DNA from: Microbotryum silenes-acaulis
Taxonomy: Eukaryota; Basidiomycota; Microbotryomycetes; Microbotryales; Microbotryaceae
DNA: 64,000 nucleotides
Assembly: GCA_003665825.1 (NCBI GenBank)
Contig: QPFY01000013.1
Location: 124,001-188,000 of the forward strand
Direction: 5' to 3'
In this document: in pieces, positions 2,488 through 60,656 of the stretch
How positions within the stretch are numbered: the first letter of the stretch is position 1
Layout: the number at the start of each line of letters is the position of its first letter
Notes under the pieces: generated by a model
What the model was told of the DNA's origin: nothing
Databases searched by the model: none
The model's input: the letters and a program-made list of their open reading frames with translations, nothing else
Program-made: the position numbers and the translations under genes

Positions 2488-4087
2488 TTACTGACTCTTC
2501 TCGACGACCTTCTTCGCGACGTCCCTAAAGTCATTCAAAGCCTTCTTCGCACTCCCGTTCTTGAGACTCTTCCTCGCCAATTCAACACCTTCGAACCCAT
2601 CTTTGGCCTTCCCAGCAACGATCAACACTGCTGCGGTATTGAGGACCACGAAATTCTCGATGGGGTTGGAAGGGCCGAGTTGGTCGTCTAGGAGGGAGTT
2701 GAGGGTCGACGCGTTCTCCGAGGGTGATCCGCCCGATACGAGGGAGAGTGGGGAGCAGGGAAGACCGAAGTCGCGCGTGGGATGGATCACACGAGGGGTG
2801 ATGGTATCGTCTTTGAGATCCCAAATCTGATCAGAAAAAAGTTGGTTCGCTGATGAGTTTGCACGCCGAGTTCTTTGGCATTCGTACGAGCCAAGGAATG
2901 ACTTACATCCGTCTCGCCTTGAATACTGATCTCGTCCAAACCTTCCCTCCCACAAACGACCCAAGCCCTCTTGACGCCCGTGATCCTCAACGCCTCGACA
3001 AAGATTTCCCCGAGGTGTTTCGAATGCACGCCAACGATCATAGCCTTGGGTTTGACTGGGTTGATCAACGGACCCAAGGCGTTGAAGATGGTAGGGAAGG
3101 GGAGGGATTTGCGGATCGGAGCGAGACGAACGAGGGAAGGGTGGTACGTGGCGGCGTAGAGGAAGAGGAAACGGGAGGAGGAGGCGATCTCGGAGAGGGA
3201 GGAGGGTGGGATGAGCGTGACGGGGCAATCGAGGGAGATTAGGATGTCGGCACTACCGGAAGAGGAGGTGGCAGCTTTGTTGCCGTGCTGAATGAACGCA
3301 GTGCGAGGAAGAGGGGGTTCGCAGGGAGAAGGTGGGGGGCGAGAAGAAAAAGTAAGGGTGTGGGGGGCAGAGTGAGGGGGGCATGCAAAGACATGTGATC
3401 ATGTCAGCAAATGAATTCGGAGCAACAGATAATCTAAATACTTGGTAAATCTCGAAGACTGACCTTGTAGACCCTACATCCGACACCCGCTGCGACGATC
3501 GCGGCCGTGGTCGAGACGTTGAACGTGTTCTGGCCGTCTCCTCCCGTGCCGACGATATCGCAGACGGGGCCTTCACCCAGACCTTCTCCGACGTCGACGG
3601 TGACGGCGTTTGATTGCATCACCTTGGCACACTCTGCGACGATCAGAGGGTTGCCATCCTTGCCGGAGAAACGAAGAGCGGCGAGGAAGGCTCCGATCTG
3701 GGCTGGGGCTGCACCGGCCTCGACGGCGAGGTGTTGGAAGGCGAGCGAGACGTCGACCGAGGTGAAGGTCGAGGGCTGGAGGACGAGCTTCTTGACGAGG
3801 AGAGCAAAAGATGCAGGCGAGTACTCGGGCTCGGGTTCGCACGGACTCTGCTTCGGAGAGGGCGACACCGCTCGAGAGTCGTCACTGTGGGAGCATGGCA
3901 GCCGTTTGAGCTACACCTACAGCAAGCGAATCAGACGGTCACTGGCGACCCACCCTACGATCCTGTTGGTGTCATTGTTGAAGGGGGTGGTCGCTCCCGA
4001 GCCCGAGCCCGAGCCGGAGACGGAGACGGAGGCGGAAGAAGCTCCTCTCGACGACTGACCGCGCTGCTGTTCGTTGTACTGCTTCAT
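2488..4087 (-). CDS. TRP4: Anthranilate phosphoribosyltransferase
   Basis: Catalyses the second step of tryptophan synthesis, joining anthranilate and PRPP to give phosphoribosyl-anthranilate in the cytosol. Exons read on the minus strand: 4087-3954, 3884-3464, 3287-2907, 2826-2488 (424 residues, phases close). The PRPP-binding loop [18 protein letters not shown] is clear, followed by [16 protein letters not shown], the NALGPLINP segment and the INPxx-type C-terminal half ending in a Lys-rich helix. The assigned start is an ATG at 4087; it adds a Gln/Ser/Gly-rich leader of about 45 residues (including [10 protein letters not shown]) before the conserved helical domain. The first intron (3885-3953) could instead be 36 nt with donor at 3920; both keep frame. 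The gene is divergent from the PFK26-like gene. Confidence 0.93.
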
Positions 4088-8467: not shown

Positions 8468-8714
8468 TATCGCAGAAAAGATGCGAGCGCGGAAGTAAAG
8501 CCTTCCGATAGGTGAGGGTGCACGACGCCGAGAAGTCAGGACCACAATGTAGAGCGAGTGATGAGAAAGCTACCAAGAGTAAACAGCCGCGCGGGAAGAA
8601 AACCCCGCGCGCTCCCTAACTTAAACAGATCAAACTCCAATACCAAAGTGACTAATGACTAAACGCACGCGCATCCGCGCAGATACCACAGGCACAAACA
8701 CATATCAAATGACA
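8468..8714 (-). repeat. Copia 3' LTR (247 bp)
   Basis: On the minus strand it starts TGTCATTTG and ends CTGCGATA, so the terminal dinucleotides are TG...TA rather than TG...CA. It differs from the other LTR at three visible sites (near 8602, 8686 and 8693). The last codons of pol extend about ten bases into it: the stop is at 8705-8707. Confidence 0.93.
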
Positions 8715-11700
8715 CTCCCACATGCCAAGGTAGCCAGCGAGACCATCCCGAGTCTCTCGCGATGCGTAGCGAACTTGAGCTTGGATAGGGGTTTTGTCAA
8801 AATGTCGGCCGTGTTCAGATCGGTCGGACAGTAGCGGAGATCGATATCGCCAACCTCGATTCGTTCGCGTAGATAGAAATGATGCACATTCCAATGGCGA
8901 GTACGACCTCGAGCTCCGGGATTCTTCGCCAAATCGATGCAAGGTTGGTTGTCCTCGTGCAGAACAGTAGATCGACCTTGATTGATGCGAAGTTCGGACG
9001 CCAGGTTGCGAAGACCGATAGCCTCCTTTGCTGCAGTTGAAGCAGCCAGAGTCTCAGACTCTGCTGTAGAAGAAGCGACCATCGTTTGTTGCTTCGACTT
9101 CCAGGAAATGGCAGCGCCAGCCATAATAACGACATACGCTCCCACAGATCTGCCGTTGTCGTGATCGCAACCAAACGACGCGTCACTGTACACCTCGAAC
9201 TTGGTAGAACCGCCTACGCGGTAGAGTAGCCCATAGTCGACGGTGTCAGAAAGATAGCGAAAGATTCGCTTGACGCAGATCCAGTCTCCTTCGGTTGGAG
9301 CAGCCACGCACTTCGCCACCGCACGCTTTCGAAGGTGTAGTGTTCGAGTAAGCCTCGAATGTACTTTGATTGGTGGACGAAGATGAAATCCTTGGTACGA
9401 AGAAACTCGAGACCGAGGAACGTCTTGACCGGGCCAAGTCGCTTGAGCTTGTAGACCGCATCGAAAGCCGAAATCTCGGAGTCCAGAAAAGCCTGGTTGT
9501 TCGATGCAGCAAGCCCATCATCAACGTACAATGTGATGATCGCGAACGACTTGCCATGATACTTGAAGTAGAGACAAGCATCGACATTGGAGCGCGTATA
9601 GCCGCGATCCGTCATCAGCTTGTGGAGAGCCGCGTTCCATTGCCGAGGAGCTTGCTTGGTGCCATACATGGATTTGAGGAGCTTGAGAGCGTGACCGGGC
9701 TGAGAACCACCAGTCCATCCTTCAGGAACCTTCATGTAGACATCCTCCTCCATGATCCCGTTGAGAAATGCAGAATCATAGTCGAACTGTTCGAGGACGA
9801 GTCCGAGAGCGGCAGAAATCGCAATGAGAAACAAGATCGTCGTGATCGACGACAGGAGCAAACGTCTCGTTGTGCAAAGCCTTGGATGACGAGACGAGCC
9901 TTGTAGCTGATGATGTTGCCTTCAGCGTCTTCCTTCCGAGTGAACACCCAACAATAGCCCAGGGCGCGTGCCTCGGTGGGTAACCTCGTAAGCTTGAAGA
10001 CCTTGTGCAATTTGAATGAGCCCAACTCCTTGTCAGAAGCGGCCATCCAGTGTTTGGCCTCAGGAGAGACCATCGCTTCCACAAACGTTTTGGGAAGTGG
10101 GGGGTGACGAGACGAAACCATAGCAATGAGCTCTGGTGGACGACAGTAGACCGAGCGAGTAGACACGACACGAAGGGCACCTGCACGATGCTGAGCACGC
10201 AGGCGAGTCAGTAAAATGTTACCGGCATCGACGTTCTCGAGCGCGCCAGGGTTTCGGCCGACACGGTAAGGTCGATACTCGTAACCATCCTCAGGAGGTA
10301 ATGGTTGATCGTGTTCCGCAGGGCTGTCGTCATCGTCACTGTCGATAGCCTCAACAGCTTCCTCGCGTCGATGATCGATCGGGTCTTCTTCAACTTCAGC
10401 GTCTTCGGCCAACGGGCCGATAGCCGGTAAAGGAAAAGGAGCAACGACGTCATCGTCCATATGTTGGAAACGAGGAAGAGGAGCGGGAGCTGGCCAAAAA
10501 GCCGGACCAAGCTCGGGTACGAGCGCAGGCCGTAAAGCCGGAACCGCCTCGGGAAAGAGCGCAGGCTGAAAAGCCAAACCTGCCTCAGGAAGGGGAGCAG
10601 GCCGTAAAGCCGGAATCTGCTCCAAGCCAGGAAACGGCAGTTGGTGTACTAACTCGTATTCCTGTAGAGGTTCAACTTCGTAGATGCGAGGCTCGACAGC
10701 CGAGTCCGCGATCGAAGGAGCCTTGTCGGAGAAGGTGACATCGGAAGAGACGACGATCTTGAAAGACCGACCGTGTTCGACGCGAACCTTGTAGTTGTAC
10801 TCCCCCGAATAGCCGAGGAAAGTACCCTTGACAGTATGGTCATCGAGCTTCTTACGAATCGCCTTGGGGACGAGAACGTAGGCAGTAGATCCGAACGCGC
10901 GAAGATGCGAAACGTCGAGTTGCTTGCCGAAGAAGAGCTCGAACGCAGTCTTGCCCTTGAGATGCGGGTGAGGACCGCGGTTGGAAACGAAAACAGCCGC
11001 TTCCAATGCGTAGAACCAATACTTCTTGGGAAGTCCGGAGTCCTTGAGCATGGCACGAACGAGCGCGAAGAGAGAGCCGTTCGCGCGCTCCGCTTGACCA
11101 TTCTGCTGCGGCGTGTAGCGTGCAGCCAGCTCATGGGTGATGCCAAGTGCCTTGAATTCGTCGCCAAAGAGTTGGTTGACGAACTCGCCTCCATTGTCAG
11201 AACGAACAAACTTGATCTTCTGACCGGACTGCCTCTTGACCTGCGCTTGAAAGCCGCGCCAGACCTCGAGGACTTCGGATGCCGACTTCGAACCAAGTGG
11301 AAAAGCCCACTTATAGGTTGAAAGTTGGTCGACGATAACCATGTAGATGGATCGTCCATTGGTATCGTCATCGTTGACGAATCCCAGATCGATCGAAACC
11401 CGTTGAAGAACATGTTCGGGTTTTCGACTGACATGATTGTGAGAGCCCGCGCGCGCCTTTGCGATGATGCACGGCTCACAGTCTTCAATCTTCTTGTCGA
11501 GTAAACGAATTCCAACGACAGCCTTGGATTTGACGAGTTGAAGAATTGAAGACGGTGCCATGTGTCCGAAGCTCCGATGCCATTCCATGAGCGAAGCTCC
11601 AACGGAAGCACGGGTAGCTGCGACGAGCACAGGCGAGGGTGGAGAAACAATCTCAAAATCGAAGACGTAACTTGGTTGTTTGGCCTTCGTCTTGACAGTT

Positions 11701-13070
11701 TCGGCGACGAGAGAGCCGTCAAGCCAAACCTGTTGAGTATCTCCCCCATGGCCATAAACCAATTTCGCGCCTCCAGCGCGGAGCGACGACATTGAGATGA
11801 GACCATACTTCGATCCAGGGAGGCAGTACATCTCCTTGAACTTGAGAAGGTGACCTTGCGAAGTCTTAACAGACATTCGCCCGTATCCAGTGGCTTGACC
11901 AAGCGAATTGTCGGCCATCTGGACTTGCATCGGGGATTCTTTGAAGTCCGAGAGCAGCGAGCGATCGCCAACAAAGTGGTGACCAGCTCCGGTATCCGCG
12001 ATCCAAACGAAATCGGTATCGGGAGCTCTCGAGGAAGAACCAGCAAGGTAAAGGGAATGGGAGTTCATTGCAACCAACGCGGGGGCTGCAGATGACTTTG
12101 AGCGGTTTTCAGGGCACACAGCATCGCTAGACCAGTGTCCCTTCGCTCCACATGCATGACAGGTCGAATCGGGAGGGCGGCGATTTCCTTGACCGTCACG
12201 ATTGCCTTTCTTGTGACTGCTTTTGCGACGCGCTCCCTTTTGCGATTCGCCTTGCGCAACGAGCGCGGGAACAGGCGACTGAGCAATGGCGCGTCCGGAA
12301 GTCGTGGCAGATAGACCGTTGATGCGACTTGCCAGCGAGATTTTGAACTGATACGACCGTGCCTCTGAAACAATCTCCGAAGGAAGAGCCAGAGGTCGAC
12401 GCAGTGAGCTGGTGAACGACTCGTGTTGCGGGTCGAAGACGGAATCGAGCATCAGCGTCGACTGTTGAGCTGGTGGCATCCCGGAGCCACACGCCTCAAG
12501 ATCTTGTAGAATTCCTTGGATGGTGATCAGGTGGTGAAGCAACTGCCCGCGATCGCCAGACGAGAACTTGCGCGCATAGAGCTCAGTCGTCAAGGCGCCG
12601 ATCTGAGCGCTCATCGTGCCGAGGTAGAACGTGTTCAGCGAGTCGAGTATGTCGTAAGACGTGTAACAACCCCTGACCAGGTGAAGATTGGCCTCGTCGA
12701 GAAACTGAATGATTTCAGCCTGAGTTCGAACCTCCTTCTTTAGCTCCTTGGCGATCTTCGCGTCCATAGCTGCGAAGTCGAGCCGCTCGAGTGGCGAGTG
12801 GAAGCCACGCGATCGATCGTCGATTGCGGCCTGAAGAACAGCCTCCGCAGCCGGGCTCATCCGCCTCGATGCGCAAAGATGCAAATCCTTGGACCCAAAA
12901 CGACCAATAAGACGTCGACGCCAATCCATGTAGTTGGAGGCTCGAAGAATTGGGACATGTAACCCACGATCACTCGTTTCGGTGGAGGGTGTATCGGTGT
13001 CCATTCCGATGGTGGTGCGATGGGAATCGCTTTGCTGACCCGGGCCTCCTACGCTACCCGTTGGGCTCAT
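8705..13070 (-). pseudogene. Copia gag-pol polyprotein, frameshifted
   Basis: The ATG is at 13070. An open frame of ~1070 codons covers gag, a zinc-knuckle-like CHACGAKGH...C (CX2CX4HX6C, last spacing longer than usual), protease motif ADTGAGHH, the HHCC/pre-integrase WHRSFGH...CEPC, and the integrase core with D-D-E (IDLG, RSDNGGEF, then GQAERANGS). A low-complexity Pro/Ala spacer near 10500-10620 precedes reverse transcriptase. Frame is lost twice within ~30 bases near 9855-9890 (GFAQ, then NETFAPV, then SSITT). The polymerase motif YVDDG is intact downstream. Near 9320 the frame shifts again and the ~50-60 residues expected between LEHYTFE and [12 protein letters not shown] are absent. RNase H ([24 protein letters not shown]) follows. 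Start and primer site overlap. Confidence 0.92.
8715..8723 (-). promoter_or_regulatory. Copia polypurine tract
   Basis: On the minus strand ATGTGGGAG lies directly before the TGTCATT start of the 3' LTR, the expected place of the plus-strand primer. Confidence 0.7.
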
Positions 13071-13074
13071 AACC
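13063..13074 (-). promoter_or_regulatory. Copia primer-binding site for an initiator tRNA-Met fragment
   Basis: Directly after the 5' LTR the minus strand reads GGTTATGAGCCC. Its complement GGGCTCATAACC is the anticodon stem-loop sequence of eukaryotic initiator tRNA-Met. Drosophila copia and yeast Ty5 are known to prime from such a half tRNA. The gag-pol start codon (13068-13070) sits inside this site. Confidence 0.85.
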
Positions 13075-13321
13075 TATCGCAGAAAAGATGCGAGCGCGGA
13101 AGTAAAGCCTTCCGATAGGTGAGGGTGCACGACGCCGAGAAGTCAGGACCACAATGTAGAGCGAGTGATGAGAAAGCTACCAAGAGTAAACAGCCGCGCG
13201 GGAAGAAAGCCCCGCGCGCTCCCTAACTTAAACAGATCAAACTCCAATACCAAAGTGACTAATGACTAAACGCACGCGCATCCGCGCAGATACCATAGGC
13301 ACAGACACATATCAAATGACA
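13075..13321 (-). repeat. Copia 5' LTR (247 bp)
   Basis: Same length and ends as the LTR at 8468-8714, with about three substitutions between them, implying a recent insertion. It should contain the element promoter; no clear TATA box was picked out. Confidence 0.93.
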
Positions 13322-25833: not shown

Positions 25834-28739
25834 CTACCATCCCTCCAAGTCCCTCAAAGCCCTCTGCACCAACTCGGCCGCGGAGAAAGTCGGCTCGACC
25901 TATGAAAACAGAATGAGCTCGAGTCCCTTCTCAGAGGTGAAACTTGGTGCGGAGAACCAACTAACCTCAACTGATGATGCGAAAGACGCCGTTCGAACTT
26001 CGGTAGAAGGAGAGAAATCCGTTCCTTCCACATGTGAACGGGTGGTGGAAGGTGGATGGAGTTCTCCTACCTCCGCTAAAGCGCGAGAGAGTTTAACTTC
26101 CATCGGAGCTGTCGAACCCATCCCAACAAACAAGACAACATCAGCACTCCGTCCTAAACCAATCTAAACCCCGACATAATACTACAGCCCAAACCTCTCC
26201 CAGACGTACAAGCACTCTTATACACCGTCGTCGCCAACTTCAGCGCGCGATGCAAGATCCTCAAACTGTCGAAATCAAACTCTGCTTCCTTCAAAGGTCC
26301 GGTTTGAAGGGCATGGTGTTGGGCTCCGAGGATGGCGAGGGGTATCCAGGTGGGGAGAGAGTCCTGTGGTTGTGGATGGGGTGTGTTATTGGGGTTGCAA
26401 GGTGGTATGAGTGGGGGGTATACGCACTAGTTTGATGACGTAGATCGCACGGGTGTGATTATCGGCGTAGGAATCACCAATCTGTGAAACCCGCCCCGAA
26501 ACAGGGTCCATTCAGCTCCACCACCCCTTCTCTCGAGAATTTATCCAACGCTGTATTCAAACCTCACCAATCCAATCATCTGAACGAACAACCTCAACCA
26601 CTTGAGGAACCTCAACTGCGCACCCTCTACGATCCTCTGCCCCTCTATGGAGGTGGGGTCGTTTGAGGCCCTTCGATCGGCTTCGGTCACGAGGGCGACG
26701 AGGGTGAGGAGGGGGACTACGGGGGAGGTGAGGTGAAGCAATGACCGTCAATCGTGTAAAGACGTCAGAGAAGGTGGACTCGAGCTTACCAGCAAAGAAA
26801 TGCGGCGTTTTGCGCACCATCCTTCGCACATCGTATAGGTCTCGAAGCCTTTCATCGACGGTCGCGAAGAGATGTTGGAAAGCTTGGAGGACGTTCGAGC
26901 TCAAATCAGGGTCTATACAGACAAGGCCCAAATGGTCAGTTCGACTAGAACACCGGTGCACGGGATAAAACTCAGGTGAGGTTGATGCTTGAGCTCGTTC
27001 TCACCTTGCAACCTCAACTTAGCCAACCACCGAAGTTGTCGAATATTGTCAAGTTGCACGTCGTCCCACTCTGCTGGGGCGTCCTTGTTGCACGCGTCTG
27101 AGGTAATCGTCCGTTCTTCAATTTTCGTAATGGGGGATGCATAATCCATCTGAGCTTGTTCGAGTCCATAGATGTCGAGCATCTCGTCCTGTCTGTAGTG
27201 AATGGTATGAAGAAGCCAGGAGATCAGCCAACTTGTCGGGACTCCCCTTTCCCATCCCAACCAACCCAACTCACACAACCAACTCCTTTCCCATTACCAC
27301 CGCATCATAAGCATCAAACACCAGTAACGTATCCCCTTCCAACGTCCTGCCCGCCAACCTCGTCGTCGGATCGCTGTGTTTAGCAATCACCAATGCGCCT
27401 ACGCCTTTCTTGCGCATGTTATCGATGAGTCGTAAACGATGCGAGTTTTGGACTATATTGGTCGTGAAGGGACGCTTGTTCGTGAAGGACGAGGAGATGG
27501 AGCTGGCTCCGGCTAATGATATGAGCAAAAATGGGGTGGTGGGACATCAGCCCCACTTTCGAGGAAACTCCCATCACTTCGAACGACCCCACTCACCCGA
27601 AGTTGCAATCCTGAGGATATTCATCACCTCCAACGACGTCCCCTCCAAATCATCGAACAAGCCCGACCTCTCCGCCGTCTCCACAGCCCTAGCAATCAAA
27701 CTCGAACACGCCGCGTCCCTCCTCTCCCCTAGAGCAAGGGTCGTCAATTCGTCGGGGGAGGAAAGGAGCGAAGGGGCCATGATACCTGTTATACTGGAAT
27801 GGAAGGAACGACGCGCACCGATGGCGGCGAGGGAGGCGAGGACGACCTGGAAATGGAGAGAAACGAGGTGAGTTTTTCATGATCGGAATCCGGGATGTGA
27901 GGAAACAGGAGCTCACATTCTCGTAGCGTGATTCAGCATCGGCCGACGTCCTCCTCGTAATGGTGCTCAACACATCCTCCACTGTTCTCGCCCCAATGGT
28001 GACGAATTTCGAAGCTTGTGCCGAGACTGAACGAGTCGGAGAAGATGAGATCAGTCTTCCCTCCCCGGGAAGAATTTACCTCCCTCCAACCCAGTGAGAC
28101 GCACGTGATATCAAATGCCAATACAGGGAAGCGTTCATCTCCCTTTGCCCTATCCTCGCCATCGGACTACTCGGTCTTAAATTGAGTGGTCCCAATCGAT
28201 TCTGTTGGACGACGACGACACCGCAAGTCGGGGATGAAGTCGTTGATGACTCGGAGGCTGAGGATGCGGCTGAAAGAGCGGCGGCGGTCTGGGCCCTCCA
28301 AACGTCGAGTACTTTGCCGGACCGTCTGCGCTTTTTGGTGGGTCGGCGACTGTAGACGACCAGGACGAGCGTACGATTTAGACAACTTGTACCCTCGTAC
28401 CTTCGTGTGAACTCACTCCAAGGCTGCATCGTCGTCGTCGTCGTGCTCTGACTTTACCCGAAACGTGCCGGAAGCGTTCGTCAGCGCTGCTGCCGTGGTT
28501 ATCGCCGTGGTCGTGGTCGTGGGGGAGACGCGCCCATTCCCAGTCGAGTCGAGGTGGGTGTTGACGCGGTTAAAGAATGATTCTAAGGCTTCCATCGCTC
28601 CGGGTGTGGATCGGCGAGGGGGCGAGGGGCTGATGGCTAGCGCGAAGTGGTTCATCGTGTCACGTGGGAGGAGAGACGCGCGTGGGCTTGACTCGATGAG
28701 AGATGCGTGCGTCTCCGAAAACAGCAATTTCAGGCCCAT
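25834..28739 (-). CDS. Fungal transcription-factor-like protein lacking a visible zinc cluster
   Basis: Twelve exons, read down the minus strand: 28739-28417, 28349-28105, 28026-27917, 27846-27597, 27512-27275, 27192-27005, 26912-26790, 26716-26568, 26481-26428, 26363-26210, 26108-26071, 25899-25834; 645 residues, every junction in phase. The core resembles the fungal-specific transcription factor middle region, in particular LLVFDAYDAVVMGKELVVQD, which matches the D...G-R-P...I-D pattern of that family. A basic stretch RRPTKKRRRSGK near residue 110 could be a nuclear signal. No Zn2Cys6 cluster is visible in the model or in the ~400 bases upstream, so either a 5' exon was missed, the cluster was lost (the gene ends close to the rearranged FunK1 locus), or the protein never had one. 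Confidence 0.75.
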
Positions 28740-29320
28740 TTGTACATCGGAATAAGGTGTCTGAGGGGTCAATTTGTACCTATTTTGAGTCGTACATAGG
28801 AAGAGGACCGAGAATATGAGAGATTCAATGTTATGAAACTGCCAAAAAATCGCTCTCCACCAGCCAGAAATCTGAAAATTGCTCCGACCGGTGCTAACGT
28901 CGCATCGACTTTCACGGCCGGCCGGTCGGACCGGCCCGGCCGCTTGTCGGCTCGGCTCCCTCCGACGTCTGAGCTTCCCCCCTCCTCGCCAACATGCGCA
29001 TTTCCCTTTCGAATCGGGGCCAAGGACGCTGCAAGGACCGCATTGAGCTTAGCGGCTGTTGTGCTTGGTGAAGACTCCGGATCTGGCTTGCGAATATAAC
29101 GAGCAAGGCGCTTTTAAGACTCACCATATCCGAGGGCAAATCCTTCTCCGTTGCGGATCTTGAGCTCAATTTATCACAGTCCTATTTGTGGTTTAGTCCA
29201 CAGACAACTAAGGAACCTACCTTCAACGCACTCTCGGCCAATACGGAGCCATTGCTTGCGCCGAGGTGTGGATGCTGCTGTTCAAGCTGTGGGTAGCGAA
29301 CAGCACCAGACTCGGAGCCC
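28740..29320. other. Intergenic region next to the inverted-repeat locus
   Basis: No recognisable gene. A short palindromic stretch, ggccggccggtcggaccggcccggcc, lies near 28915-28942. Minus-strand frames are open but not convincing as upstream exons of the transcription-factor-like gene. Confidence 0.45.
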
Positions 29321-30052
29321 GTCTCCGAGCCTTTCCGAGGGCCACTGGACTAAAAGGTATCTCTGCCAACAAGCATTGCAATGACAATGCCAACACTCAT
29401 GCTACAAGATCAGAGCGCGTCTTGTCTCCCCCCTGGACCGTAGACGGTGCCCTGTCCCGCGCGGTCCCCTCGACGATGCGCTCGATCAAAGCATCCAAGT
29501 CCGAGGCTAGCTGGCGGTGCGAGAATTCGCCGCTTGCCCAACGAGGTTCGAGGACGGCGGCTTCGTCGACCTGCGCGGCCCACAACTTGCGCTGCACACC
29601 CAGACCGCAGTACTTGGCGACCGTCTGCACGAGCGCACGCAGATTCTCCTTCCAAAACTTCTTGAAGGGCTCGAACCATTGTTGCGCACCCCAGGACGCT
29701 AAGAAGAGCTCGTCTTTCGAGTTGACGGCACCGAGTTGCGAGTTCCACTGCCTCCAGATGCTCTTGACGTCCTCGGACAGCTCGCTCGAGTCGTCGGGTC
29801 CACTGGGCATGATGAAAACGGTGTACACGATCACATAGACCAGCGATTCAATATCATGCCATGGCTCATGAAAGAACGCTGGTCGCCCTTTGTACTCCTC
29901 GACCAGCTCTCTTGCACGAAATGCCAGCGTTCCCTGGCGTTATCGGTTCTCCGCGGTCCGTCATCAGCACTAGTCGATGCCCGGTGGGGCGAAACCAGCC
30001 TTGGTCGGGCCAGAAATGTACTCACAGCGTTTTTCTTGCGTTCCGCCTCCCC
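29321..30052 (-). repeat. 732-bp inverted repeat, left arm, with copy of FunK1 3' half
   Basis: Its reverse complement recurs at 31671-32402 with the same length and apparently no difference, including the intron. It carries a duplicate of the last FunK1 exons on the minus strand: the AERKKNA end of one exon, a GT-AG intron, then GTLAFRARELVEEY to the stop at 29397-29399. This copy has no N-terminal half of its own and is a pseudogene fragment. Confidence 0.95.
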
Positions 30053-32326
30053 GCGCGCATCCACCGCCGGGTCGGCTACTTGGTCCCCGCCCCCCTCGGA
30101 ACGGGACGACAAGTCTCAGTCGCATGGGTCCGACCAAGAAGCAACGTCAGAGCCCAAAGCAGCGTCGGCCACGTCGTCCCCGGCTCAAAGCGACTCCAAG
30201 CCACCCCCCGTTCGTCGTTTCGGTCGCGTTACTAGGCTCAGGGGTCTGGGCTCCTCAACCGGCGAGAGCAATGACGGAGACCGCGAGATCGAATGGGCGG
30301 GGTTAAAGGACTTTTTCCTCGCGCCGTTGACCGACGACATTGACACGACCGTCGTCCCAGAGATCGTGTGGGAAGACGGAAAGCCGACGTTGGTGAGTGC
30401 GCACAGGGCACATGATGACCATCGGTCTCTGGTGAACGTGCCCGAGCTGAGTTTGACCACCAAGTGAACAGAAGAGTCGAGGTCGGTTGCTGAGCTTCCA
30501 AGAAGATAACAAAAGCGTTGACGTTCATAATCCTTCGGTTATCCCGGACGTCGTTCTCCTCACTCGCGAAGCATTCGAGGCCGACCCAAGTCTGGTAGCT
30601 ACCTGGACATCGGACGACGACGTCGACAAGGATGCCTACGATGATCCGCGGTCGTGGTCACAAGTTGCTGCCGTTGCCGAAATTAGCAGGACGCCGAGTG
30701 TCGATCCATCCGACTCCGACTCGGATATATTGTCCGGCCCTGAGCGCCTACGAGAATCCCTTTCCGCGCTCGTCTCGCAATCGCTTCGATCTCACGCGTT
30801 CGGGTTCGACCTCTGTGACAACATCCTCGAGATCGTCCTCCATACTCCAAGCGGTCGTTTTTGCAGCCCCACAATCTACTGTACCGAAGCGAATGGTGAC
30901 CTTGCAACCTTTCTGGCGAGACTGCTCAGCCTGAGCAATCGCGAGCTCGGCATCATCTCCTCACTGCGTGACCGTGTGGATTCGGCCTCGTTCTCGTTTC
31001 CGTCGTGCGAACTTCCATCTCGCGTTCCGCTGTTTGACAAGCGTCTCTCGGGCTCCCCTCCTCTCGAAGATATCAGAATCCTCGAAACACTCTACAAGTC
31101 CGACTCCATCTTTGGACGTCACACTTCGGCGTTCCGCGTTTCGACAGGCGGCGAAGGTTCGACTACGCATGTCGAGTATGCGATGACGGTCTCGTTCGTC
31201 GAAGAAGCTCGCTGCGATGAACACGATCGCATCCGTCTCGCCATCGCTAACGCGTCACCCGAGGATCGACAAGGGCTCACCAACGTCGTCGACGTGTATC
31301 GCGAGCGCGACTTTGTCGTCGTTCCCCGATTCTTCCCCGATACTCTCGACGCCAGCGCGTGGGGTCTCAAGCCGCGAGCGTTGGAGGTGACATTCCATGA
31401 ACAGTGCTTTGAACCGATCTGCGTCGTCGATTCGACCGCAGCGTTGGCACGCGTTATTCTGGGTGCCGTTCAAGGTCGGGACGCTCAGTCTTACTCTGTG
31501 ATATGCTTTCCTCGCGCCGTTGGCTGATCCTATCTACTGCAGGCCTAGACAGTCTTTACCGCCTGCGTATCCTTCATCGGGACGTCTCCGCATCGAACGT
31601 CATGGTCACATCGGACGGTAACGGCGTGCTGATCGACTACGACACTGCGGTGTTCATGGACGGTCCGGAGGGGGAGGCGGAACGCAAGAAAAACGCTGTG
31701 AGTACATTTCTGGCCCGACCAAGGCTGGTTTCGCCCCACCGGGCATCGACTAGTGCTGATGACGGACCGCGGAGAACCGATAACGCCAGGGAACGCTGGC
31801 ATTTCGTGCAAGAGAGCTGGTCGAGGAGTACAAAGGGCGACCAGCGTTCTTTCATGAGCCATGGCATGATATTGAATCGCTGGTCTATGTGATCGTGTAC
31901 ACCGTTTTCATCATGCCCAGTGGACCCGACGACTCGAGCGAGCTGTCCGAGGACGTCAAGAGCATCTGGAGGCAGTGGAACTCGCAACTCGGTGCCGTCA
32001 ACTCGAAAGACGAGCTCTTCTTAGCGTCCTGGGGTGCGCAACAATGGTTCGAGCCCTTCAAGAAGTTTTGGAAGGAGAATCTGCGTGCGCTCGTGCAGAC
32101 GGTCGCCAAGTACTGCGGTCTGGGTGTGCAGCGCAAGTTGTGGGCCGCGCAGGTCGACGAAGCCGCCGTCCTCGAACCTCGTTGGGCAAGCGGCGAATTC
32201 TCGCACCGCCAGCTAGCCTCGGACTTGGATGCTTTGATCGAGCGCATCGTCGAGGGGACCGCGCGGGACAGGGCACCGTCTACGGTCCAGGGGGGAGACA
32301 AGACGCGCTCTGATCTTGTAGCATGA
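30053..32326 (+). CDS. FunK1-type fungal protein kinase, 5' end unclear
   Basis: A member of the fungal-specific kinase-like family (FunK1). Exons: about 30053-30392 (5' limit not defined), 30472-31474, 31543-31697, 31790-32326, phases consistent. The N-terminal half contains the family block RSHAFGFDLCDNILEIVL. The catalytic part has ILHRDVSASNVMV (HRD...N) and VLIDYDTAV in the DFG position, then GTLAFRARELVEEY and WHDIESLVYV, as expected. The final 230 residues lie in the right inverted-repeat arm. No ATG was found in frame between the left arm and the first donor; the open frame instead runs back into the antisense of the left arm. The true start may therefore have been replaced when the inverted copy arose, or lies in a missed exon. 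Confidence 0.75.
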
Positions 32327-32402
32327 GTGTTGGCATTGTCATTGCAATGCTTGTTGGCAGAGATACCTTTTAGTCCAGTGGCCCTCGGAAAGGCTCGGAG
32401 AC
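31671..32402 (+). repeat. 732-bp inverted repeat, right arm
   Basis: Partner of 29321-30052. It begins in the exon that encodes the kinase DFG-like region (ggggaggcgg), includes the last intron and exon, the stop at 32324-32326 and ~76 bases of 3' flank ending ctcggagac. The spacer between the arms is 1618 bases. Confidence 0.95.
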
Positions 32403-32914
32403 GACCGACCTGAACCCAAAGCGCCACTTTCTCTGCCACATGTAATGTACCTGACACGCTTCCCTTCAACAAGTCCGCGGGCCACGTGGCAAGCCGTTTG
32501 TGAGAAAGTTCCGAATTGCCGTCCTTTGTCTCGCACCTGGTCTGGAGGACTCTTTCTTGTTGTGAGAGTCGCTAGGGCCCCTGTGGATTGAAAAGTGACT
32601 GTTACACTCGGCTCTTGTACGTCTTTTCGAGCCCCTTTGCGCGATACCGTAAGCTGCGACCGCACATGCTGGTGTAGGAACGACGTCGGGACGCCGGTTG
32701 GCCGAAGTGAGAGGGAGCGGGTTGATGCGAGCGGAGGAGAGCGAGAGGCGTGAACGGATGGGTGGGCGCCGAACAACTGCCAGAGGCGATCCCCGAGCGA
32801 GTATTAAGGGCTTCTAGCAGCTTGTAGTGACGCATTAGCCCGAGCCCCCCACCCGGAGGGTTCGACCGACGCCTCCTGCTCTCCGCTCGCACACACCACC
32901 CACCTTTCCCCACC
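32403..32914. promoter_or_regulatory. Upstream region of the SNIP1/Pml1-like gene
   Basis: About 500 bases between the right repeat arm and the next start codon. No gene is seen. The 60 bases before the ATG are C-rich, as in many leaders here. Confidence 0.5.
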
Positions 32915-34329
32915 ATGCCAGCCCCTTACGACCGATCCCCACCTCCTCACCTCAAGAACCGCTCCAACGCCAACACCAGCATCTCCTCTCGCTACCCCTC
33001 TGATGCAGGACGTTCGGATCGACCGCACGATCGGGAGCGCTCCCCACCTCTTGCTCGAAGGAGAAATGAGTATGAGCAGCGGGAGAGGTATAAGGGTGAT
33101 GATAGGAGGGATGATAGAAGAGAAGCCAATGGTCGATCCTATGGCCGGGATGCAACGAGGCAGAGTCCACCACCACGATCAAGGGACTTTGATCGCGACG
33201 ACCGACTAGCGGACACGGACAGGTCCCGCCGACCACCCCCTCCTTCCTCCTCAAGACGGTCTCGGTCTAGATCGCCCCCCCGTACCACCCGCTCCGTCGC
33301 ACCACCAGATAGTAAACCCGACTGGGGAGCCCGACGCCGTTCCCGTTCCCGTTCTCGCTCTCGTTCACCCGGAAGACCCAGTCGTGCTCTCGCAAGTCAA
33401 GCCGAACAAATGCGTAAAGATGGGTTCGAACCTTCGTCTCAGCGTGGAGGAGGAGGCGATGAAGGAGCGGTGGAGAAGGTCAAACCTGTTGAACCGAACT
33501 TTGCGAATTCGGGGGCGTTGGCGGCGGAGACAAAGTCAGTAGGCGACCTCAAGAGTTCCCCCATCTCCTTCATGGCTGACCTCCCCGCGGTCGTTCACGA
33601 CGCAGTACCCTCCGAGGCGTGGTCCTGAAATACAACGAACCCCCTGAAGCGAGGAAACCCGTACGGTCGTGGAGACTGTACGTCTTCAAGGGCAAGGAAC
33701 AATTGGGTACGTTTCCTCGTTTGGCCGCAGGGGAAGATCAGATCACAGGTGAAAGACTCTTTCTGACTTTTTCTCCTTCGCTTTATTGGTCAAACGAACA
33801 GACCTTATTCTGGTCCATCGACAATCCGCATACTTGTTCGGGAGGGATAGGATAGTGCGTACCTTTCTCCACCCACCCCCACAACCCCACCTGACCCACA
33901 CCTCCCTCCTCCAGGTCGCCGACATCCCTATCGACCACCCTTCCGCTTCGAAACAACATGCCGTATTACAATACCGACAAGTCCACGAAACGAACGAGTT
34001 TGGGGATACTAAATCGGTCGTCAAGTACGTTCAAGAGTTCTTCGAACCTTACCGGAGATGAAAAGGGAAAGCTGATCTTCATCTCCTTCTGCGCCTACTA
34101 GACCATTCATTATAGACCTCGATTCCGCGAACGGCACTTTGGTCAATGATGAGATGGTCCCCAAGCAGAGGTTTTACGAGTTGAAAACGGGCGACGGTCA
34201 GTCCTAATTTCAAGAAGGTTTGAAAGGTCTTGTTGAGGATAGAGTGCTGATCTGGGGCGAGTTTTCAATACCGTGCCAGTGCTCAAGTTTGCGTTCTCGC
34301 AAAGGGATTACGTCTTGTTGGCCGAATGA
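32915..34329 (+). CDS. PML1: FHA-domain pre-mRNA processing protein, SNIP1/Pml1 family
   Basis: Homologues are the Pml1 subunit of the pre-mRNA retention and splicing (RES) complex and metazoan SNIP1. Exons: 32915-33534, 33606-33706, 33802-33854, 33915-34024, 34102-34196, 34280-34329; 342 residues. Residues 1-170 are an Arg/Ser/Pro-rich, disordered region with RS repeats (RSRSRSRSRS). The family linker GVVLKYNEPPEARKPVRSWRLYVFK precedes an FHA domain: ILVHRQSAYLFGRDR, ADIPIDHPSASKQHAVLQYR, then IIDLDSANGTLVNDE, with the phosphothreonine-binding Arg and Ser/His residues in place. The second exon start was set so as to give ETNTLRGVVLKY, which agrees with relatives. Convergent with the VWA gene. 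Confidence 0.93.
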
Positions 34330-55911: not shown

Positions 55912-56214
55912 GGTAACTCTGGTCCCACACCGGAGGCGACTGGTCCCACATCGGAGGCGACTTTGGGATCACATCGGAGCGGACTTTGGGATCACATCCG
56001 AGGTCATTCTTGTACCACGTTCATCGGGACTTTGGTATCACATAGTGTAGACGCCTGTATCTCTTGCAATATGTGATGTATCACTCTGGGTACTGTAGTA
56101 TGATGTATGTACAGGTCTATAGTACTTCTGGCCGGTGAGACGAGGCGGACAATGCAGTAGTTGCTACATCGAGGTTCTTCCCCGCTTGGCCTCTCCGCGC
56201 CCGTGGTGTCAGCG
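55912..56214 (-). repeat. Inverted repeat with 23-bp tandem units, left end of a 4.7-kb segment
   Basis: The reverse complement of 60332-60656 with scattered mismatches and small indels. It shares the core gtagcaactactgcattgt and, at its outer side, several 23-bp units of the type ccgatgtgatcccaaagtcc (here seen as gactttgggatcacatcgg). Confidence 0.88.
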
Positions 56215-56649
56215 GTCCGGCGCCCGAACCGCCAAGGCCGTTTGCGCCGATTAGAGCAGAATTGGCACCGGTCCCTCGCTTCTCTCATCCATGAAGAACA
56301 GTTCATACAGCTTGAGCAAAGATGTAGATTATAGTAAGTAACGCTTCGACATTGACGGACTTTGTATGATCATTGCAATTGAACGATATTTAAACGTAAT
56401 CACATGTAAAAACTTGGCTCGCTTTACCTCTCCTTTATTTAGTGCTGCTCAAAGTGAAGATACGAGTTCTTAGCTCTTTCTTGGTATGACGAAATGTTAG
56501 ACTGTAGCTACTTCGAGCATGCATGACCTAGATCACACTTCAACTTTCGGTCTCGACATTGCGAGCAAGCTTTCCGCCGACTGGTGCTCGAGGTCACGCT
56601 TTCCGCTTCCGAATGACGCCGTTTGCTAGGAGTCGCAACAGCGGAAGTG

Positions 56650-57962
56650 CTACTCTCTTGAAGAATGGTAGAGTGCTTGCATTACTTTGGTAGGTGTTCG
56701 ATATCGCGCGTGGCAATTACTGGCGGAAATGAAGGAAGGGCGAGGGGACTCATGGTCAGTCTTGAGATGAGAAAACTTCCTGGGCAAACTTGGCTTGCCG
56801 AAAGACTTCTTGACGCGCCAACGCACGAATGAAAGGGGTTGGATGTCAGACGTTCGGCGGGGGTTGGCGTCGTTCGTGATTGCCGAGGGCGTACACCAGC
56901 GCCGATGAAAGATCGTCGGCCTGAACGAGGATCTGCACAAGGGACGAAGGAGGAAGGAAAAAGAAAGACATGTCAGCCACCCAAACCAAGTTCCTTTGAT
57001 TTTATATGCGAAATGATCACCTTGAGTTGGCTAGAGCATTGTTTTCCCGGGGCCCTGTAGTTTCTCGTACCCGAGTTCGCCATCCTTTCCTCGATCTCTT
57101 TTGCAGGCCGGGCCCGAGCAACGATGGCCATTCGTAGAACCTCCACAACAGGTCGACCTTCGCGGGTTGACTCCAAGCTTTTAGAAGAGTGATCGGCACT
57201 TCTGGACGTCATCAGATCCCCACTGCCACGTCCGACGGATGTTGATGAGTAGACGAGGGCGCGTCACCGTACGGTCGCTCGACGACAGCGAGACAGCATT
57301 CATTTTGCGTGGAGCCCAGTCATGCTTCTGTTGATATATCTCACCAATAAGAGTTAGGTCGATCACAGGACGAAACAAAACGCAGCGCAGCACGCAGCTT
57401 CGACACACCTCTGTAGCTATGAACCTTGGGAGCTCCAGGACAGGAAGTTTGCTTACAAATTCCATTTGGATTTCTGCTTGCGAGGAACGAGCGGCCTGAG
57501 ACGGAGCTCGTTGTGCTCTGCAGTGGTGAGGATTATGTTTGAGAAAATTGCGACGCGCGTCGTGTTCGACAGTTCGTCGGTCTGCCTTCCGCCGAGAGAG
57601 CTCGCAGGTATGCTGGTCCAAATCTTCTTGTCTTTCCGAGCCAGGAGTGGTGCGCAGACGATGTTGTCAGGTAATACCTCGTTCAAGCTGCCTTCTTAGA
57701 CTCCGTAGTATGAATCGCTTGCCGAAGCCTCTTCGGAGTCGCTGGAACAGTTCTTGCGAGAGTTCGAAAGCCCCGAGGCTGAGGAGGTGCGAGACGTCGA
57801 GGACTTGGGGGAAACCGCGACCAAAGCTGCCGAGAGTTTCGAAGCGTCCTCATCCTCATATAGATCCGATTCATCTTCCGATAGGTATGGGTCTGGCGAG
57901 ATTTGTTGTTGCAGCGCAATGGGTGAGCGGCCCCCTTTGTCTTGAACTTGCAGTTGGTTCAT
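56650..57962 (-). pseudogene. Decayed gene inside the repeat-bounded segment
   Basis: On the minus strand, frames at 57962-57696, 57686-57453 and further down to about 56650 read in a coding-like way. The first encodes an acidic N terminus (PDPYLSEDESDLYEDEDASK) and continues, after an in-frame TAA at 57696-57698, with LPDNIVCAPLLARKDKKIW. A plausible donor (gtaagc) follows, then further fragments. An acidic leader before a Lys/Trp-containing domain is seen in some cut-and-paste transposases, but no catalytic triad could be found. The product is unrecognised; introns and broken frames cannot be told apart here. Confidence 0.35.
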
Positions 57963-58130
57963 CGCTTAAGTTGTTGACATGAGCGTACTTGGCGTCGTCT
58001 AGAAGGTACCCCATCCAGGCGTTGTTGTGCTCGAAATGGGCGAACTATCCACTCAACAAGGAAGGAAAGGAGTGCTTTGTGTGAGGATTGTATGTGTACG
58101 AGTGGGCGAGTCTCGGCTCTGTCGGATGCT

Positions 58131-58200
58131 CGCTCGTTCGAGGCCGCCTGCCAGCGCGGTCGTAACGGGGTCGAGTGACTCGACGATACCAAGGGAGGTA
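58131..58200. repeat. Short inverted repeat, left arm
   Basis: About 70 bases matching, in reverse complement, 58386-58456. The motif ctcgctcgttcgaggccg pairs with cggcctcgaacgagcgag. The pair flanks ~185 bases with cttgagctcgatctc and gacctcgacctc repeats just upstream of the FunK1-like gene. Confidence 0.75.
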
Positions 58201-58385
58201 GCACGTCCCTTACCTCGGTAAGGTTGTACGCGTTAGGGATTGCGCTTGAGCTTGGGCTTGAGCTCGATCTCGCGGACCTCGACCTCGACCTCAGTGACTA
58301 CAAAGTCGGCCGCGACATCGAGCTCAAGCTCACGCTCACACGCAACCCCCAACGCTTACGACCTTGCCGAGGTGAGGGACGCACT

Positions 58386-58456
58386 ATCTCCCTTGGTATC
58401 GTCGAGCCACTCGACCCCGATACAACCGCGCCGACAGCCGGCCTCGAACGAGCGAG
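58386..58456. repeat. Short inverted repeat, right arm
   Basis: Partner of 58131-58200, with a few mismatches (gtcgagccactcgacccc against ggggtcgagtgactcgac). Could fold a long hairpin in the 5' region of the next gene. Confidence 0.75.
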
Positions 58457-58494
58457 CAACCGCCAGAACCGGGAGGATCTCCGAAGCGGTCCGG

Positions 58495-59976
58495 ATGAAC
58501 CTAAAACATTGTCCGGCCCTCGAGGCCTACTTCTTCGGCCATCCGACCGCTGAGGAGCTCGCTAAGAAGATCTGGCCCAAGGAGTCCAAGATCGGCACCG
58601 AAGAAGCGCTGGCCGAGGTCATAGCAGGTGTCATCAACACGGTCAGTCGACGCCTGGATCGCTTGACATCGAGGGTGTGTATTCACATATTTCGTCGAGA
58701 GCTGACTCGCCTTCCCATTGCCGTGTGTCTTACTGTTGGACCTCTAGACTGGAGACCGGCGATTGGTCGCCTGCAGGAACTCGCCCCAGTACGTCGGCGT
58801 CGCACCTGACCGCGTGGAGACGACCGAGAAGACGGCCGACGTTGTGCTCTTGACCCACGCTGCGGTCGCGCACGATCCAACCCTCCCGGATGTATGGGCC
58901 CTTCCCAGTCACGCCGATCCGCAAGCCAAGGAACTCGACGCCGATGCGGGCCCCGACACCACCGTGAACTTCAACGCGAACGAAAACGGCAAGGGCCAGC
59001 ATCACGACGAGGACGATGACGCAGAAGAAGAGAGCACGAACAAGGTCGAGGCCAAGGAGGACCTGAACCAGGCCAAACGCTCCTTTACGCAAGTGGCCGC
59101 CGTCGGCGAGACCAAAGCGGGCAACTTCAACGCCGAGGGCCAGTTGTTCAGACGGTTGTCGGCACTCCTCGCGACGCCGATTCGAGACTATGCGATCGGG
59201 TTCACCCTGCAGTACAACCGTCTCAAAGTCTACGTGATGGCTGCTTGCGGCGTGTTCGTCACCAAACCCAGAACGGTCACCAAAGAGAATGGAGAGCTGT
59301 CGACCTTCTTATACCGTCTCATCAAACACAGTGATCGGCTTAACGGCGTTCTCGCCACCACGACCTCGTTTGACGACCGCTACGGCCCGTTCACGTACTG
59401 CCCCGACTTCTTCCCGCCGGCGGCCTCAGAGTTCAGCTGGGGAGCAACGACGATGTCCAACGTCAAGATTGAGAAGCTTTTGTTCCGTCGACAAGGAGAG
59501 TGCGGTCGCGCGACGTCGACATACAGAATCACCGCTGGCGAGGGCGCCAACGTCAGGACCTGCGCGATGACGATCATTTGGGTCGAGGAGTCGCGCAACT
59601 CGGACTTGGTCGAGATCCGCAACGTGATCCAAGAAAAGAGACCCCGAGGGCTCGCTCCGCTGGTTGGCGTCTTTCGCACCGAGTACAGAACCCTCCCCAT
59701 CTTCCTACCCGGCGACGAATCCCTCGCCGGTATCACCCCGCGGGCCAGGGAGGTCGTCGGCCACGAAGAGTGCTACAACTCACTCGCCACGCTCGAAAAC
59801 ACCAAGCAGCTCGCGCGCGCTCTCGAGGGTGCGATTGAGGGTGAGTGCTCAGAGCAGAGCGGGACAGCGCGCGGAAGGGTGTGCCTACACTGACGACCCT
59901 TTGCCGCGCGTGACAGGGCAGCGTCAGCCATGGGACTCTGGCTTCATCCACCGTGAGGTGTCATATGGCCCGGCGC
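58495..59976 (+). pseudogene. FunK1-type kinase gene truncated at the HRD motif
   Basis: Exons 58495-58641, 58748-59840, then 59917 onward, all in phase. The N terminus (MNLKHCPALEAYFFGHPTAE) and the block RDYAIGFTLQYNRLKVYVMA match the FunK1 layout and correspond to the same regions in the gene at 30-32 kb. After the third acceptor it reads WDSGFIHREVSYG, the place of HRDxSxxN, with Asp replaced by Glu; then all kinase resemblance ends. The DFG-like segment, GTLxF and C-terminal lobe are absent before the right boundary repeat. The start may lie upstream, since the frame is open to about 58240. It cannot encode an active kinase. Confidence 0.8.
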
Positions 59977-60331
59977 TCGGGCGCGCTCGGTCCGGTGTCG
60001 AGCTACTAGTAGTGTCGGCGGCGGTCACTGCAACGGCCCCAGTTCGGGCGTGGGCCAGTGGCGTCAGTCATACGAGTCAAAACAAGGCCAAGCTCGGTCT
60101 ATTATGGGCCAACTCACTGTGGCCAACTCACTGTGAAGGCCCTGGACGTGATGGTCACGGGGTACTGCAGACTGCAGTGGGGGCTGGTGACGAGCGGGCA
60201 GTGAGAGGAGGGTGAGGGAGAGCAAGATTTGAAGCGACTTTCACTTCGTTGCGAAAGGTGGTTGCGGAAGGTCGAGACCTGTCAACTACCTGTCATGAAA
60301 AAGGATTCCGCAACTTGTGAGGTCCCGGGAT
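59977..60331. other. Unassigned sequence after the truncated kinase
   Basis: About 350 bases that follow the end of kinase homology and lead to the right boundary repeat. No coding similarity is seen. A direct repeat gggccaactcactgtg occurs twice near 60106-60137. Confidence 0.5.
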
Positions 60332-60656
60332 CGCTGACACCACGGGCGCCGGAGCGGCCAAGCAGGGAAGAGTTAGAGCCCCGATGTAGCAACTACTGCA
60401 TTGTCCGCCTTGTCTCACCAGCCAGAAGTACTATAGACCTGTACATGCATCAAACTATTGTTCCCAGAGTGACATTGCAAGAGATACAGGCGTCTACACT
60501 ATGTGGTACCAAAGTTCCCATGAACGTGGTACAAGAATGACCTCGGATGTGATCCCAAAGTCCGCACCGATGTGATCCCAAAGTCCGCTCCGATGTGATC
60601 CCAAAGTCCGCTCCGATGTGATCCCAAAGTCGCCTCCGATGTGGGACCAGAGTTGC
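60332..60656 (+). repeat. Inverted repeat, right end of the 4.7-kb segment
   Basis: Reverse-complement partner of 55912-56214. Begins cgctgacaccacgggcgc; shares gatgtagcaactactgcatt and gagatacaggcgtctacac with the left end. The outer part runs into the tandem units listed at 60540-60705. Confidence 0.88.

What the first reader, a model, noticed from the sequence alone, without database searches (positions are those of the whole stretch)
29321..32402. FunK1 kinase gene lies between two identical 732-bp inverted repeats that each carry its 3' half
The arms 29321-30052 and 31671-32402 have the same length and appear identical, including an intron. Both contain the same last exons and stop codon; the 1.6-kb spacer contains the N-terminal half. 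Inversion of the spacer by recombination between the arms would always leave a complete 3' half attached but would swap the flanking context. The geometry resembles an invertible cassette, though a recent inverted duplication or assembly artefact is equally possible.
Basis: partly seen in the sequence, partly recalled or inferred. Interest (0 to 1): 0.75.

Follow-up and report, generated by a model that had tools for sequence, protein, structure and literature searches.

The report
Rearranged kinase gene with inverted duplicate
In an anther-smut fungus, one copy of a large kinase gene family has lost its beginning and gained, next to the break, a perfect backwards copy of its own end; this looks like a recent DNA-repair scar and not a genetic switch.

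Summary
The arms are 29320-30052 and 31671-32403: 733 of 733 bases identical (one base longer than reported), with a 1,618-bp spacer. The genome is a Microbotryum (29.85 Mb) with a very large FunK1 family (PF17667). The right arm is the native 3' end: its flank is unique in the genome and weakly resembles a paralog's 3' flank. The left arm is the newcomer. It ends inside codon 48 of exon 1, where proteins of M. saponariae and M. lychnidis-dioicae carry an ordinary start (MSHAQ...). The start codon, the first ~47 codons and, by inference, the promoter are gone. On its other side the left arm abuts a transposon remnant that lacks its far half. Loss on both sides, an inverted copy of nearby DNA and a CCCC microhomology at one junction point to a template-switch repair scar, or an inverted gene pair with its middle deleted. 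An invertible cassette is not supported: the arm-spacer-arm block, flipped, is its own reverse complement, so inversion changes only the outer flanks. The gene also carries a 729-bp gene-conversion tract shared with a paralog 58 kb away, and a smaller inverted FunK1 3' fragment exists on another contig. Reads are needed to exclude an assembly error.

The parts
28707..29319 (+). remnant of a TIR transposon (held copies with both ends 1.56-1.75 kb, 8-bp target-site duplications), right half missing
   Evidence: matches at 21 further places in the genome (37 matches listed); alignment with 7 held copies; exact 8-bp duplications in 5 of the 6 copies whose two ends were found; ~80% identical up to 29092, then 83-84% to a second subtype up to ~29304
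29320..30052 (-). left arm: inverted copy of the FunK1 3' half (27 nt of exon 3, intron 3, last exon on the minus strand 29397-29933, stop, 77 bp 3' sequence)
   Evidence: 733 of 733 identical to right arm
29856..30392 (+). possible chimeric first exon: ATG 29856 in the left arm (antisense) runs open into native exon 1 across 30053
   Evidence: translation; no in-frame ATG from 30053 to 30392 in that frame; expression not tested
30049..30052 (+). CCCC microhomology at the inner junction (arm and native exon 1 both have a C run here)
   Evidence: native sequence judged from paralog L011, which has five C
30053..31670 (+). spacer: FunK1 exon 1 from codon 48 (to 30392), exon 2 (30472-31474), first part of exon 3 (31543-31670)
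   Evidence: Pfam PF17667; exon borders placed by eye from splice sites and paralogs
30556..31284 (+). gene-conversion tract shared with the paralog at G000:C13:95.2-97.4 kb
   Evidence: 1 substitution in 729 bp, against 18 in 376 before it and 62 in 386 (plus 11 gap columns) after it; amino-acid mosaic
31671..32403 (+). right arm: native FunK1 3' half (exon 3 end to 31697, intron to 31789, last exon 31790-32326, 3' sequence)
32404..33000 (+). native 3' flank, unique in the genome, weakly similar to the 3' flank of the paralog L007
32915..34329 (+). right neighbour, FHA-domain protein (SNIP1/Pml1-like), found beside FunK1 in two Microbotryum species
   Evidence: M. saponariae g06559, M. lychnidis-dioicae MVLG_03349; FHA domain of the M. 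saponariae homolog P0026; ends read by eye

Best explanation
This is a rearrangement scar and not a switch. A break within exon 1 of a FunK1 gene was repaired with loss of the start codon, the first ~47 codons and presumably the promoter, and with insertion of a 733-bp inverted copy of the gene's own 3' half, which was joined on its far side to a broken transposon copy. The likely route is microhomology-mediated template switching: the broken end primed at a C/G run in exon 3, copied 733 bp in inverted orientation and was then joined to the transposon. A close alternative is a head-to-head inverted duplicate of the gene whose middle was later deleted. Shown: both arms, the truncations on both sides, native starts in relatives, the C run at one junction. 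Inferred: the order of steps, the enzyme pathway, the recent date, the loss of the promoter. The gene is probably crippled unless transcription and translation start inside the left arm. The confidence given is for a scar by either route; the two-step route listed among the rivals lies within it.
For: Arms identical. The spacer starts inside codon 48 relative to M. saponariae P0001; the C14 paralogs and P0001 have starts MSQAQ/MSHAQ; residues 1-48 of P0001 match in full only in the two C14 paralogs among six matches. The right flank is unique and resembles the L007 3' flank. The left flank is a transposon copy lacking its right half. Synteny: M. saponariae g06559 numbered next to g06560 (P0001); M. 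lychnidis-dioicae MVLG_03347 and MVLG_03349, and FunK1 P0003 on a contig of the same length, 224,480. CCCC at the inner junction. A second local inverted partial FunK1 copy: 177 bp, 95.5%, C1:1408457-1408633. Templated inverted insertions at microhomologies are known (PMC11724301, abstract and one section; PMC2621351, abstract).
Against: The outer junction shows no clean microhomology, and 733 bp is long for the insertions measured in yeast (mostly 5-34 bp; medians 50 and 150 bp for distant inverted ones in two mutants). No reads, no second strain and no DNA of the relatives were available. The left neighbour was found only in M. lychnidis-dioicae (one hit), and P0003 is a 545-aa 'variant' without the C-terminal end whose N-terminus resembles the L007 type. 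Near-identical head-to-head FunK1 pairs occur here, so the two-step route is nearly as plausible.
Confidence: 0.75

Rival explanations
1. Two-step route (lies within the confidence given above): the whole gene was duplicated head to head as an inverted pair, then a deletion removed most of the left copy, the space between, and the 5' end of the right copy.
For: Near-identical head-to-head FunK1 pairs exist: C1:1394967-1395477(-) and 1407479-1407999(+), 99.96% over 2,610 bp in the two held loci; an equal-scoring pair at C13:111.6(-)/118.1(+) kb. Of 29 neighbouring core loci in opposite orientation within 15 kb, 20 are head to head. It needs only ordinary events.
Against: Needs two events with breakpoints inside exons. 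No trace of the intermediate was seen. Opposite orientation as such is not in excess: 29 of 55 neighbours (150 of 200 core matches used).
Confidence: 0.3
2. Assembly or library artefact: a chimeric join placed an inverted copy of the 3' half at 29320-30052.
For: Arms perfectly identical; no reads were available; chimeras made by whole-genome amplification are often inverted and join at microhomologies (recalled, no call).
Against: A missed-adapter fold-back gives a palindrome without a single-copy spacer (recalled), which is not what is seen. The gene's 5' end is not in the assembly apart from paralogs, which a simple insertion artefact would not cause. A second, diverged (95.5%) example on C1 is unlikely to be an artefact.
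Confidence: 0.12
3. Invertible cassette that changes the expression of the kinase.
For: Identical inverted arms with a 1.6-kb spacer can recombine (sequence).
Against: The block is its own reverse complement after inversion; only the outer flanks change. Spacer in ancestral orientation. No recombinase domain among 10 proteins scanned except a Copia integrase core. Relatives carry a native start here.
Confidence: 0.03
4. Transposon-borne gene capture: the neighbouring TIR element picked up the FunK1 3' half and carried it in.
For: The left arm abuts a TIR-element remnant.
Against: None of the six genome matches of the arm lies inside one of the other 21 element places. No terminal motif of the element and no direct repeat at the ends of the arm or the block, judged by eye. 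The remnant is ~80% identical to its family while the arm is 100% identical to its source.
Confidence: 0.03

Closest known systems
[quoted passage not shown]
   Same: inverted copy of nearby DNA at a breakpoint, sequence lost beside it, short microhomology at one junction, next to repeats (PMC2621351 abstract; PMC11724301 abstract and one section)
   Different: 733 bp is longer than the inserts measured in yeast; the second junction has no clean microhomology; the event itself was not observed
FunK1 fungal kinase family (PF17667)
   Same: two stretches match the PF17667 profile, over the curated cut-off
   Different: 5' end lost; family very large here (142 matches, a lower bound)
Invertible cassettes / phase-variable inversions (recalled class)
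   Same: identical inverted arms around a short spacer
   Different: inversion gives the same block; no recombinase found among the proteins scanned; not shared by the relatives; other orientation not seen
Inverted gene duplications that make hairpin RNA (recalled class)
   Same: a transcript running through both arms could fold into a 733-bp perfect duplex
   Different: no transcript or small-RNA evidence; tools could not test it

Membership tests
FunK1 kinase (PF17667) | match to the Pfam model over its cut-off | tested here: met
   123.2 bits against 24.1, two stretches
FunK1 kinase (PF17667) | complete gene with native start | tested here: not met
   codons 1-47 absent, left arm in their place
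templated inverted insertion / MMBIR | inserted segment is an inverted copy of nearby sequence | tested here: met
templated inverted insertion / MMBIR | 2-5 bp microhomology at junctions | tested here: inconclusive
   CCCC at the inner junction; no clean one at the outer junction
templated inverted insertion / MMBIR | sequence lost at the breakpoint | tested here: met
   FunK1 5' end and right half of the transposon absent
invertible cassette | inversion changes what is expressed | tested here: not met
   by sequence: flipping the spacer equals the reverse complement of 29320-32403; only outer flanks change (follows). An effect of the outer flanks on expression was not tested
invertible cassette | both orientations exist | not testable with these tools
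   no reads, no other strain
invertible cassette | dedicated recombinase | tested here: inconclusive
   10 proteins scanned (8 window ORFs, 2 homologs of neighbours); only a Copia integrase core; not all ORFs scanned
transposon gene capture | terminal repeats and target-site duplication around the captured piece | tested here: not met
   none at the ends of the arm or block, by eye
hairpin-RNA locus | transcript through both arms and small RNAs from them | not testable with these tools
   no RNA data

The most novel reading that the evidence does not exclude
The FunK1 family of this fungus is diversified by frequent exchange among inverted copies, and inverted 3' fragments beside genes (here 733 bp perfect; on C1 177 bp at 95.5%) are by-products or donors of that exchange; in the window the arm has also become the gene's new 5' end and could make a 733-bp hairpin RNA that silences FunK1 relatives.
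Probability: 0.06. Interest if true: 0.6.

Novelty: new member of a known kind. Interest (0 to 1): 0.27.

Why it matters
As it stands it is a clean and probably young example of an inverted duplication with deletion at a gene's 5' end, in a fungus whose RIP-like process mutates TCG sites in repeats. The arm has 42 TCG/CGA triplets, the same in both arms, so the pair can be used to ask whether a 733-bp inverted repeat escapes that process. The wider point, ectopic conversion and inverted duplication in a FunK1 family with about 100 kinase-core loci (102 merged loci), is testable with long-read genomes of the genus.

Tried and rejected
Invertible cassette: rejected on geometry, orientation and lack of conservation in the relatives seen. 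Collinearity of left flank plus left arm with the paralog L007 at first suggested an inverted spacer; the flank proved to be a dispersed transposon (22 places including the window), while the native 3' flank lies right of the right arm, so this was dropped. Gene capture by the transposon: dropped (see rivals). Translocation of the lost 5' end: the segment was not found elsewhere except in paralogs (weak matches at C50 and C3, E 0.26 and 0.56, ignored). The L011 upstream region as a probe (33 matches) gave its two C14 copies, short repeats of about 50-60 bases at its start, and weak matches near two C13 paralogs; nothing at the window. RIP-like index after the formula quoted in PMC10502011, with the overlap term read as TCGA: arm -0.30, window -0.33, transposon remnant 0.09, six held element copies -0.08 to -0.29; no sign of hypermutation in the arm. 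Orphan 3' exons: 8 of 102 matches lack a kinase-core hit just upstream on the same strand (with 141 core rows, unchanged with 150 of 200; 50 core matches were not listed, so 8 is an upper bound); only the window's left arm is a perfect copy of its neighbour. Neighbouring core loci are not enriched for opposite orientation (29 of 55), though 20 of the 29 are head to head. Self-comparison of the window and 74 held loci (several overlap the window, and they are FunK1- and transposon-biased): no other inverted pair of 200 bp or more at 95% or more. Papers: PMC5381629, PMC10502011 and PMC4469406 seen as passages, PMC11724301 as abstract and one section, PMC2621351 as abstract; the search for 'FunK1' plus 'Microbotryum' in the held library gave 0 papers; the other searches were seen as listings.

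Full report
Observation. The inverted repeat is exact: 29320-30052 and 31671-32403, 733 of 733 bases, 1,618 bases apart. It is the only exact inverted repeat of 60 nt or more in the window. In the whole assembly (29,850,648 bases, 88 contigs; the window is C13:124001-188000) the arm matches at 100% only here; the other four of six matches are 65-79% identical.

Organism and family. It is a FunK1 kinase (PF17667, 123.2 bits against a cut-off of 24.1). The family is large: 142 matches to PF17667 (a lower bound) and 102 merged kinase-core loci from 150 of the 200 matches.

Which arm is native. Right of the right arm, 32404-33000 is unique in the genome and a stretch of it, 32532-32672, aligns in order and orientation with the 3' flank of the paralog L007 (62% identity, weak). 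Left of the left arm lies a remnant of a dispersed TIR element found at 21 further places. Of six held copies whose two ends were found, five have exact 8-bp direct duplications at their ends. The window remnant reaches to about 10 bases from the arm and lacks its right half. The spacer's first codons correspond to residue 48 on of P0001; P0001 begins MSHAQ and the C14 paralogs MSQAQ, with a first stretch of 47 residues that the window lacks. A search with those residues matches in full only in the two C14 paralogs, weakly in L007 (residues 1-40, E 0.06), and from residue 42 on in the window, the first few of these in the arm itself. So the left arm has taken the place of the native 5' end.

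Relatives at the same site. The right neighbour (FHA protein) is g06559 in M. saponariae, next in number to the FunK1 gene g06560 = P0001, and MVLG_03349 in M. lychnidis-dioicae; the left neighbour is MVLG_03347, its only hit. The M. lychnidis-dioicae FunK1 P0003 lies on a contig of the same length, 224,480; its locus tag was not seen. Its start is also native (MSHAQ), though its first part resembles the L007 type and the record, called a variant, stops before the C-terminal end. The window's state is therefore most simply derived. The DNA of these relatives was not available.

Junctions. Inner: arm ...GTTCCGCCTCCCC against exon 1 CCCC GCGCGCATCC; the arm's source continues CCCCCTCC and the paralog L011 has CCCCCGCGCGG, so a run of four C is shared. 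Outer: no clean microhomology; an 8-of-9 match GGCTCGGAG/GGCTCCGAG lies beside it, which may be chance.

What inversion would do. With left arm = reverse complement of right arm, inversion of the spacer turns the block into its own reverse complement. The coding sequence, the 3' half and the possible borrowed start (ATG 29856, in frame with exon 1) stay; only the outer flanks swap. The present spacer is joined to the arm that bears the native 3' flank, so it is in the ancestral orientation. Ordinary recombination may flip it now and then, but nothing here marks a switch.

Age. No difference in 733 bp gives an upper 95% bound of about 0.4% divergence (3/733, my arithmetic). The arm's protein part is 171 of 186 identical to M. 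saponariae P0001, so the copy, or its last homogenisation, is younger than that split. The RIP-like process of Microbotryum targets TCG (PMC5381629 and PMC10502011, passages); the arm has 42 TCG/CGA triplets, the same in both arms, and an index like the window's (-0.30 against -0.33). Gene conversion between the arms could also keep them identical, so recency is likely but not proven.

Setting: exchange among FunK1 copies. Window bases 30556-31284 differ from the paralog L007 (about 58 kb away, opposite strand) at 1 of 729 positions; before the tract 18 of 376 differ (5%), after it 62 of 386 (16%, plus 11 gap columns), and in the coding part of the arm 165 of 656 (25%). Against M. saponariae proteins the window is 124/126, 189/236, 106/108 and 171/186 identical to P0001 before, in and after the tract and in the arm, and 66/76, 240/254, 50/66 and 102/151 to P0002, whose sequence follows L007: a conversion tract. 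A second inverted 3' fragment sits on C1: 177 bp, 95.5%, about 0.5 kb beyond the last-exon match of a FunK1 gene; that gene has an inverted twin, 99.96% over 2,610 bp. Against a special design: 29 of 55 neighbouring core loci are in opposite orientation, as chance would give, and orphan 3' exons are few (8 of 102). For the two-step route: 20 of those 29 are head to head.

Verdict. Most likely an ordinary, probably young rearrangement scar: 5' deletion with an inverted 733-bp copy of the gene's own 3' half, by template switching or by deletion within an inverted gene pair. An artefact remains possible until reads are checked.

Noticed in passing
window 30556-31284 and G000:C13:95.2-97.4 kb (L007): Gene-conversion tract between opposite-strand FunK1 paralogs about 58 kb apart: 1 substitution in 729 bp. 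The L007 copy has an in-frame TAA in its last exon.
   Followed up: partly
L060 2345-2521 / 3078-3254 (G000:C1:1407724-1407900 / 1408457-1408633): Second inverted partial copy of a FunK1 last exon, 177 bp, 95.5%; the gene has an inverted twin near C1:1395 kb, 99.96% over 2,610 bp.
   Followed up: partly
window 55926-60620: A FunK1 N-terminal fragment (58748-59893) lies between inverted repeats (302 bp, 86%) that recur through the genome, several times as facing pairs: perhaps the ends of another TIR element with FunK1 cargo.
   Followed up: partly
window 8468-13295: Copia retrotransposon (gag, integrase and RT domains on the minus strand, 9732-13073) with 221-bp direct repeats differing at one base.
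   Followed up: no
G000:C9:1280-1321 kb; C18, C31, C62: FunK1 genes in mirror-image series on C9 and in head-to-tail series with 6,571-6,572-bp spacing on C18, C31 and C62 (coordinates).
   Followed up: no
P0021 (M. saponariae): A 1,180-aa protein with both PF05970 (PIF1-like helicase, name recalled) and PF17667 in its precomputed Pfam list.
   Followed up: no
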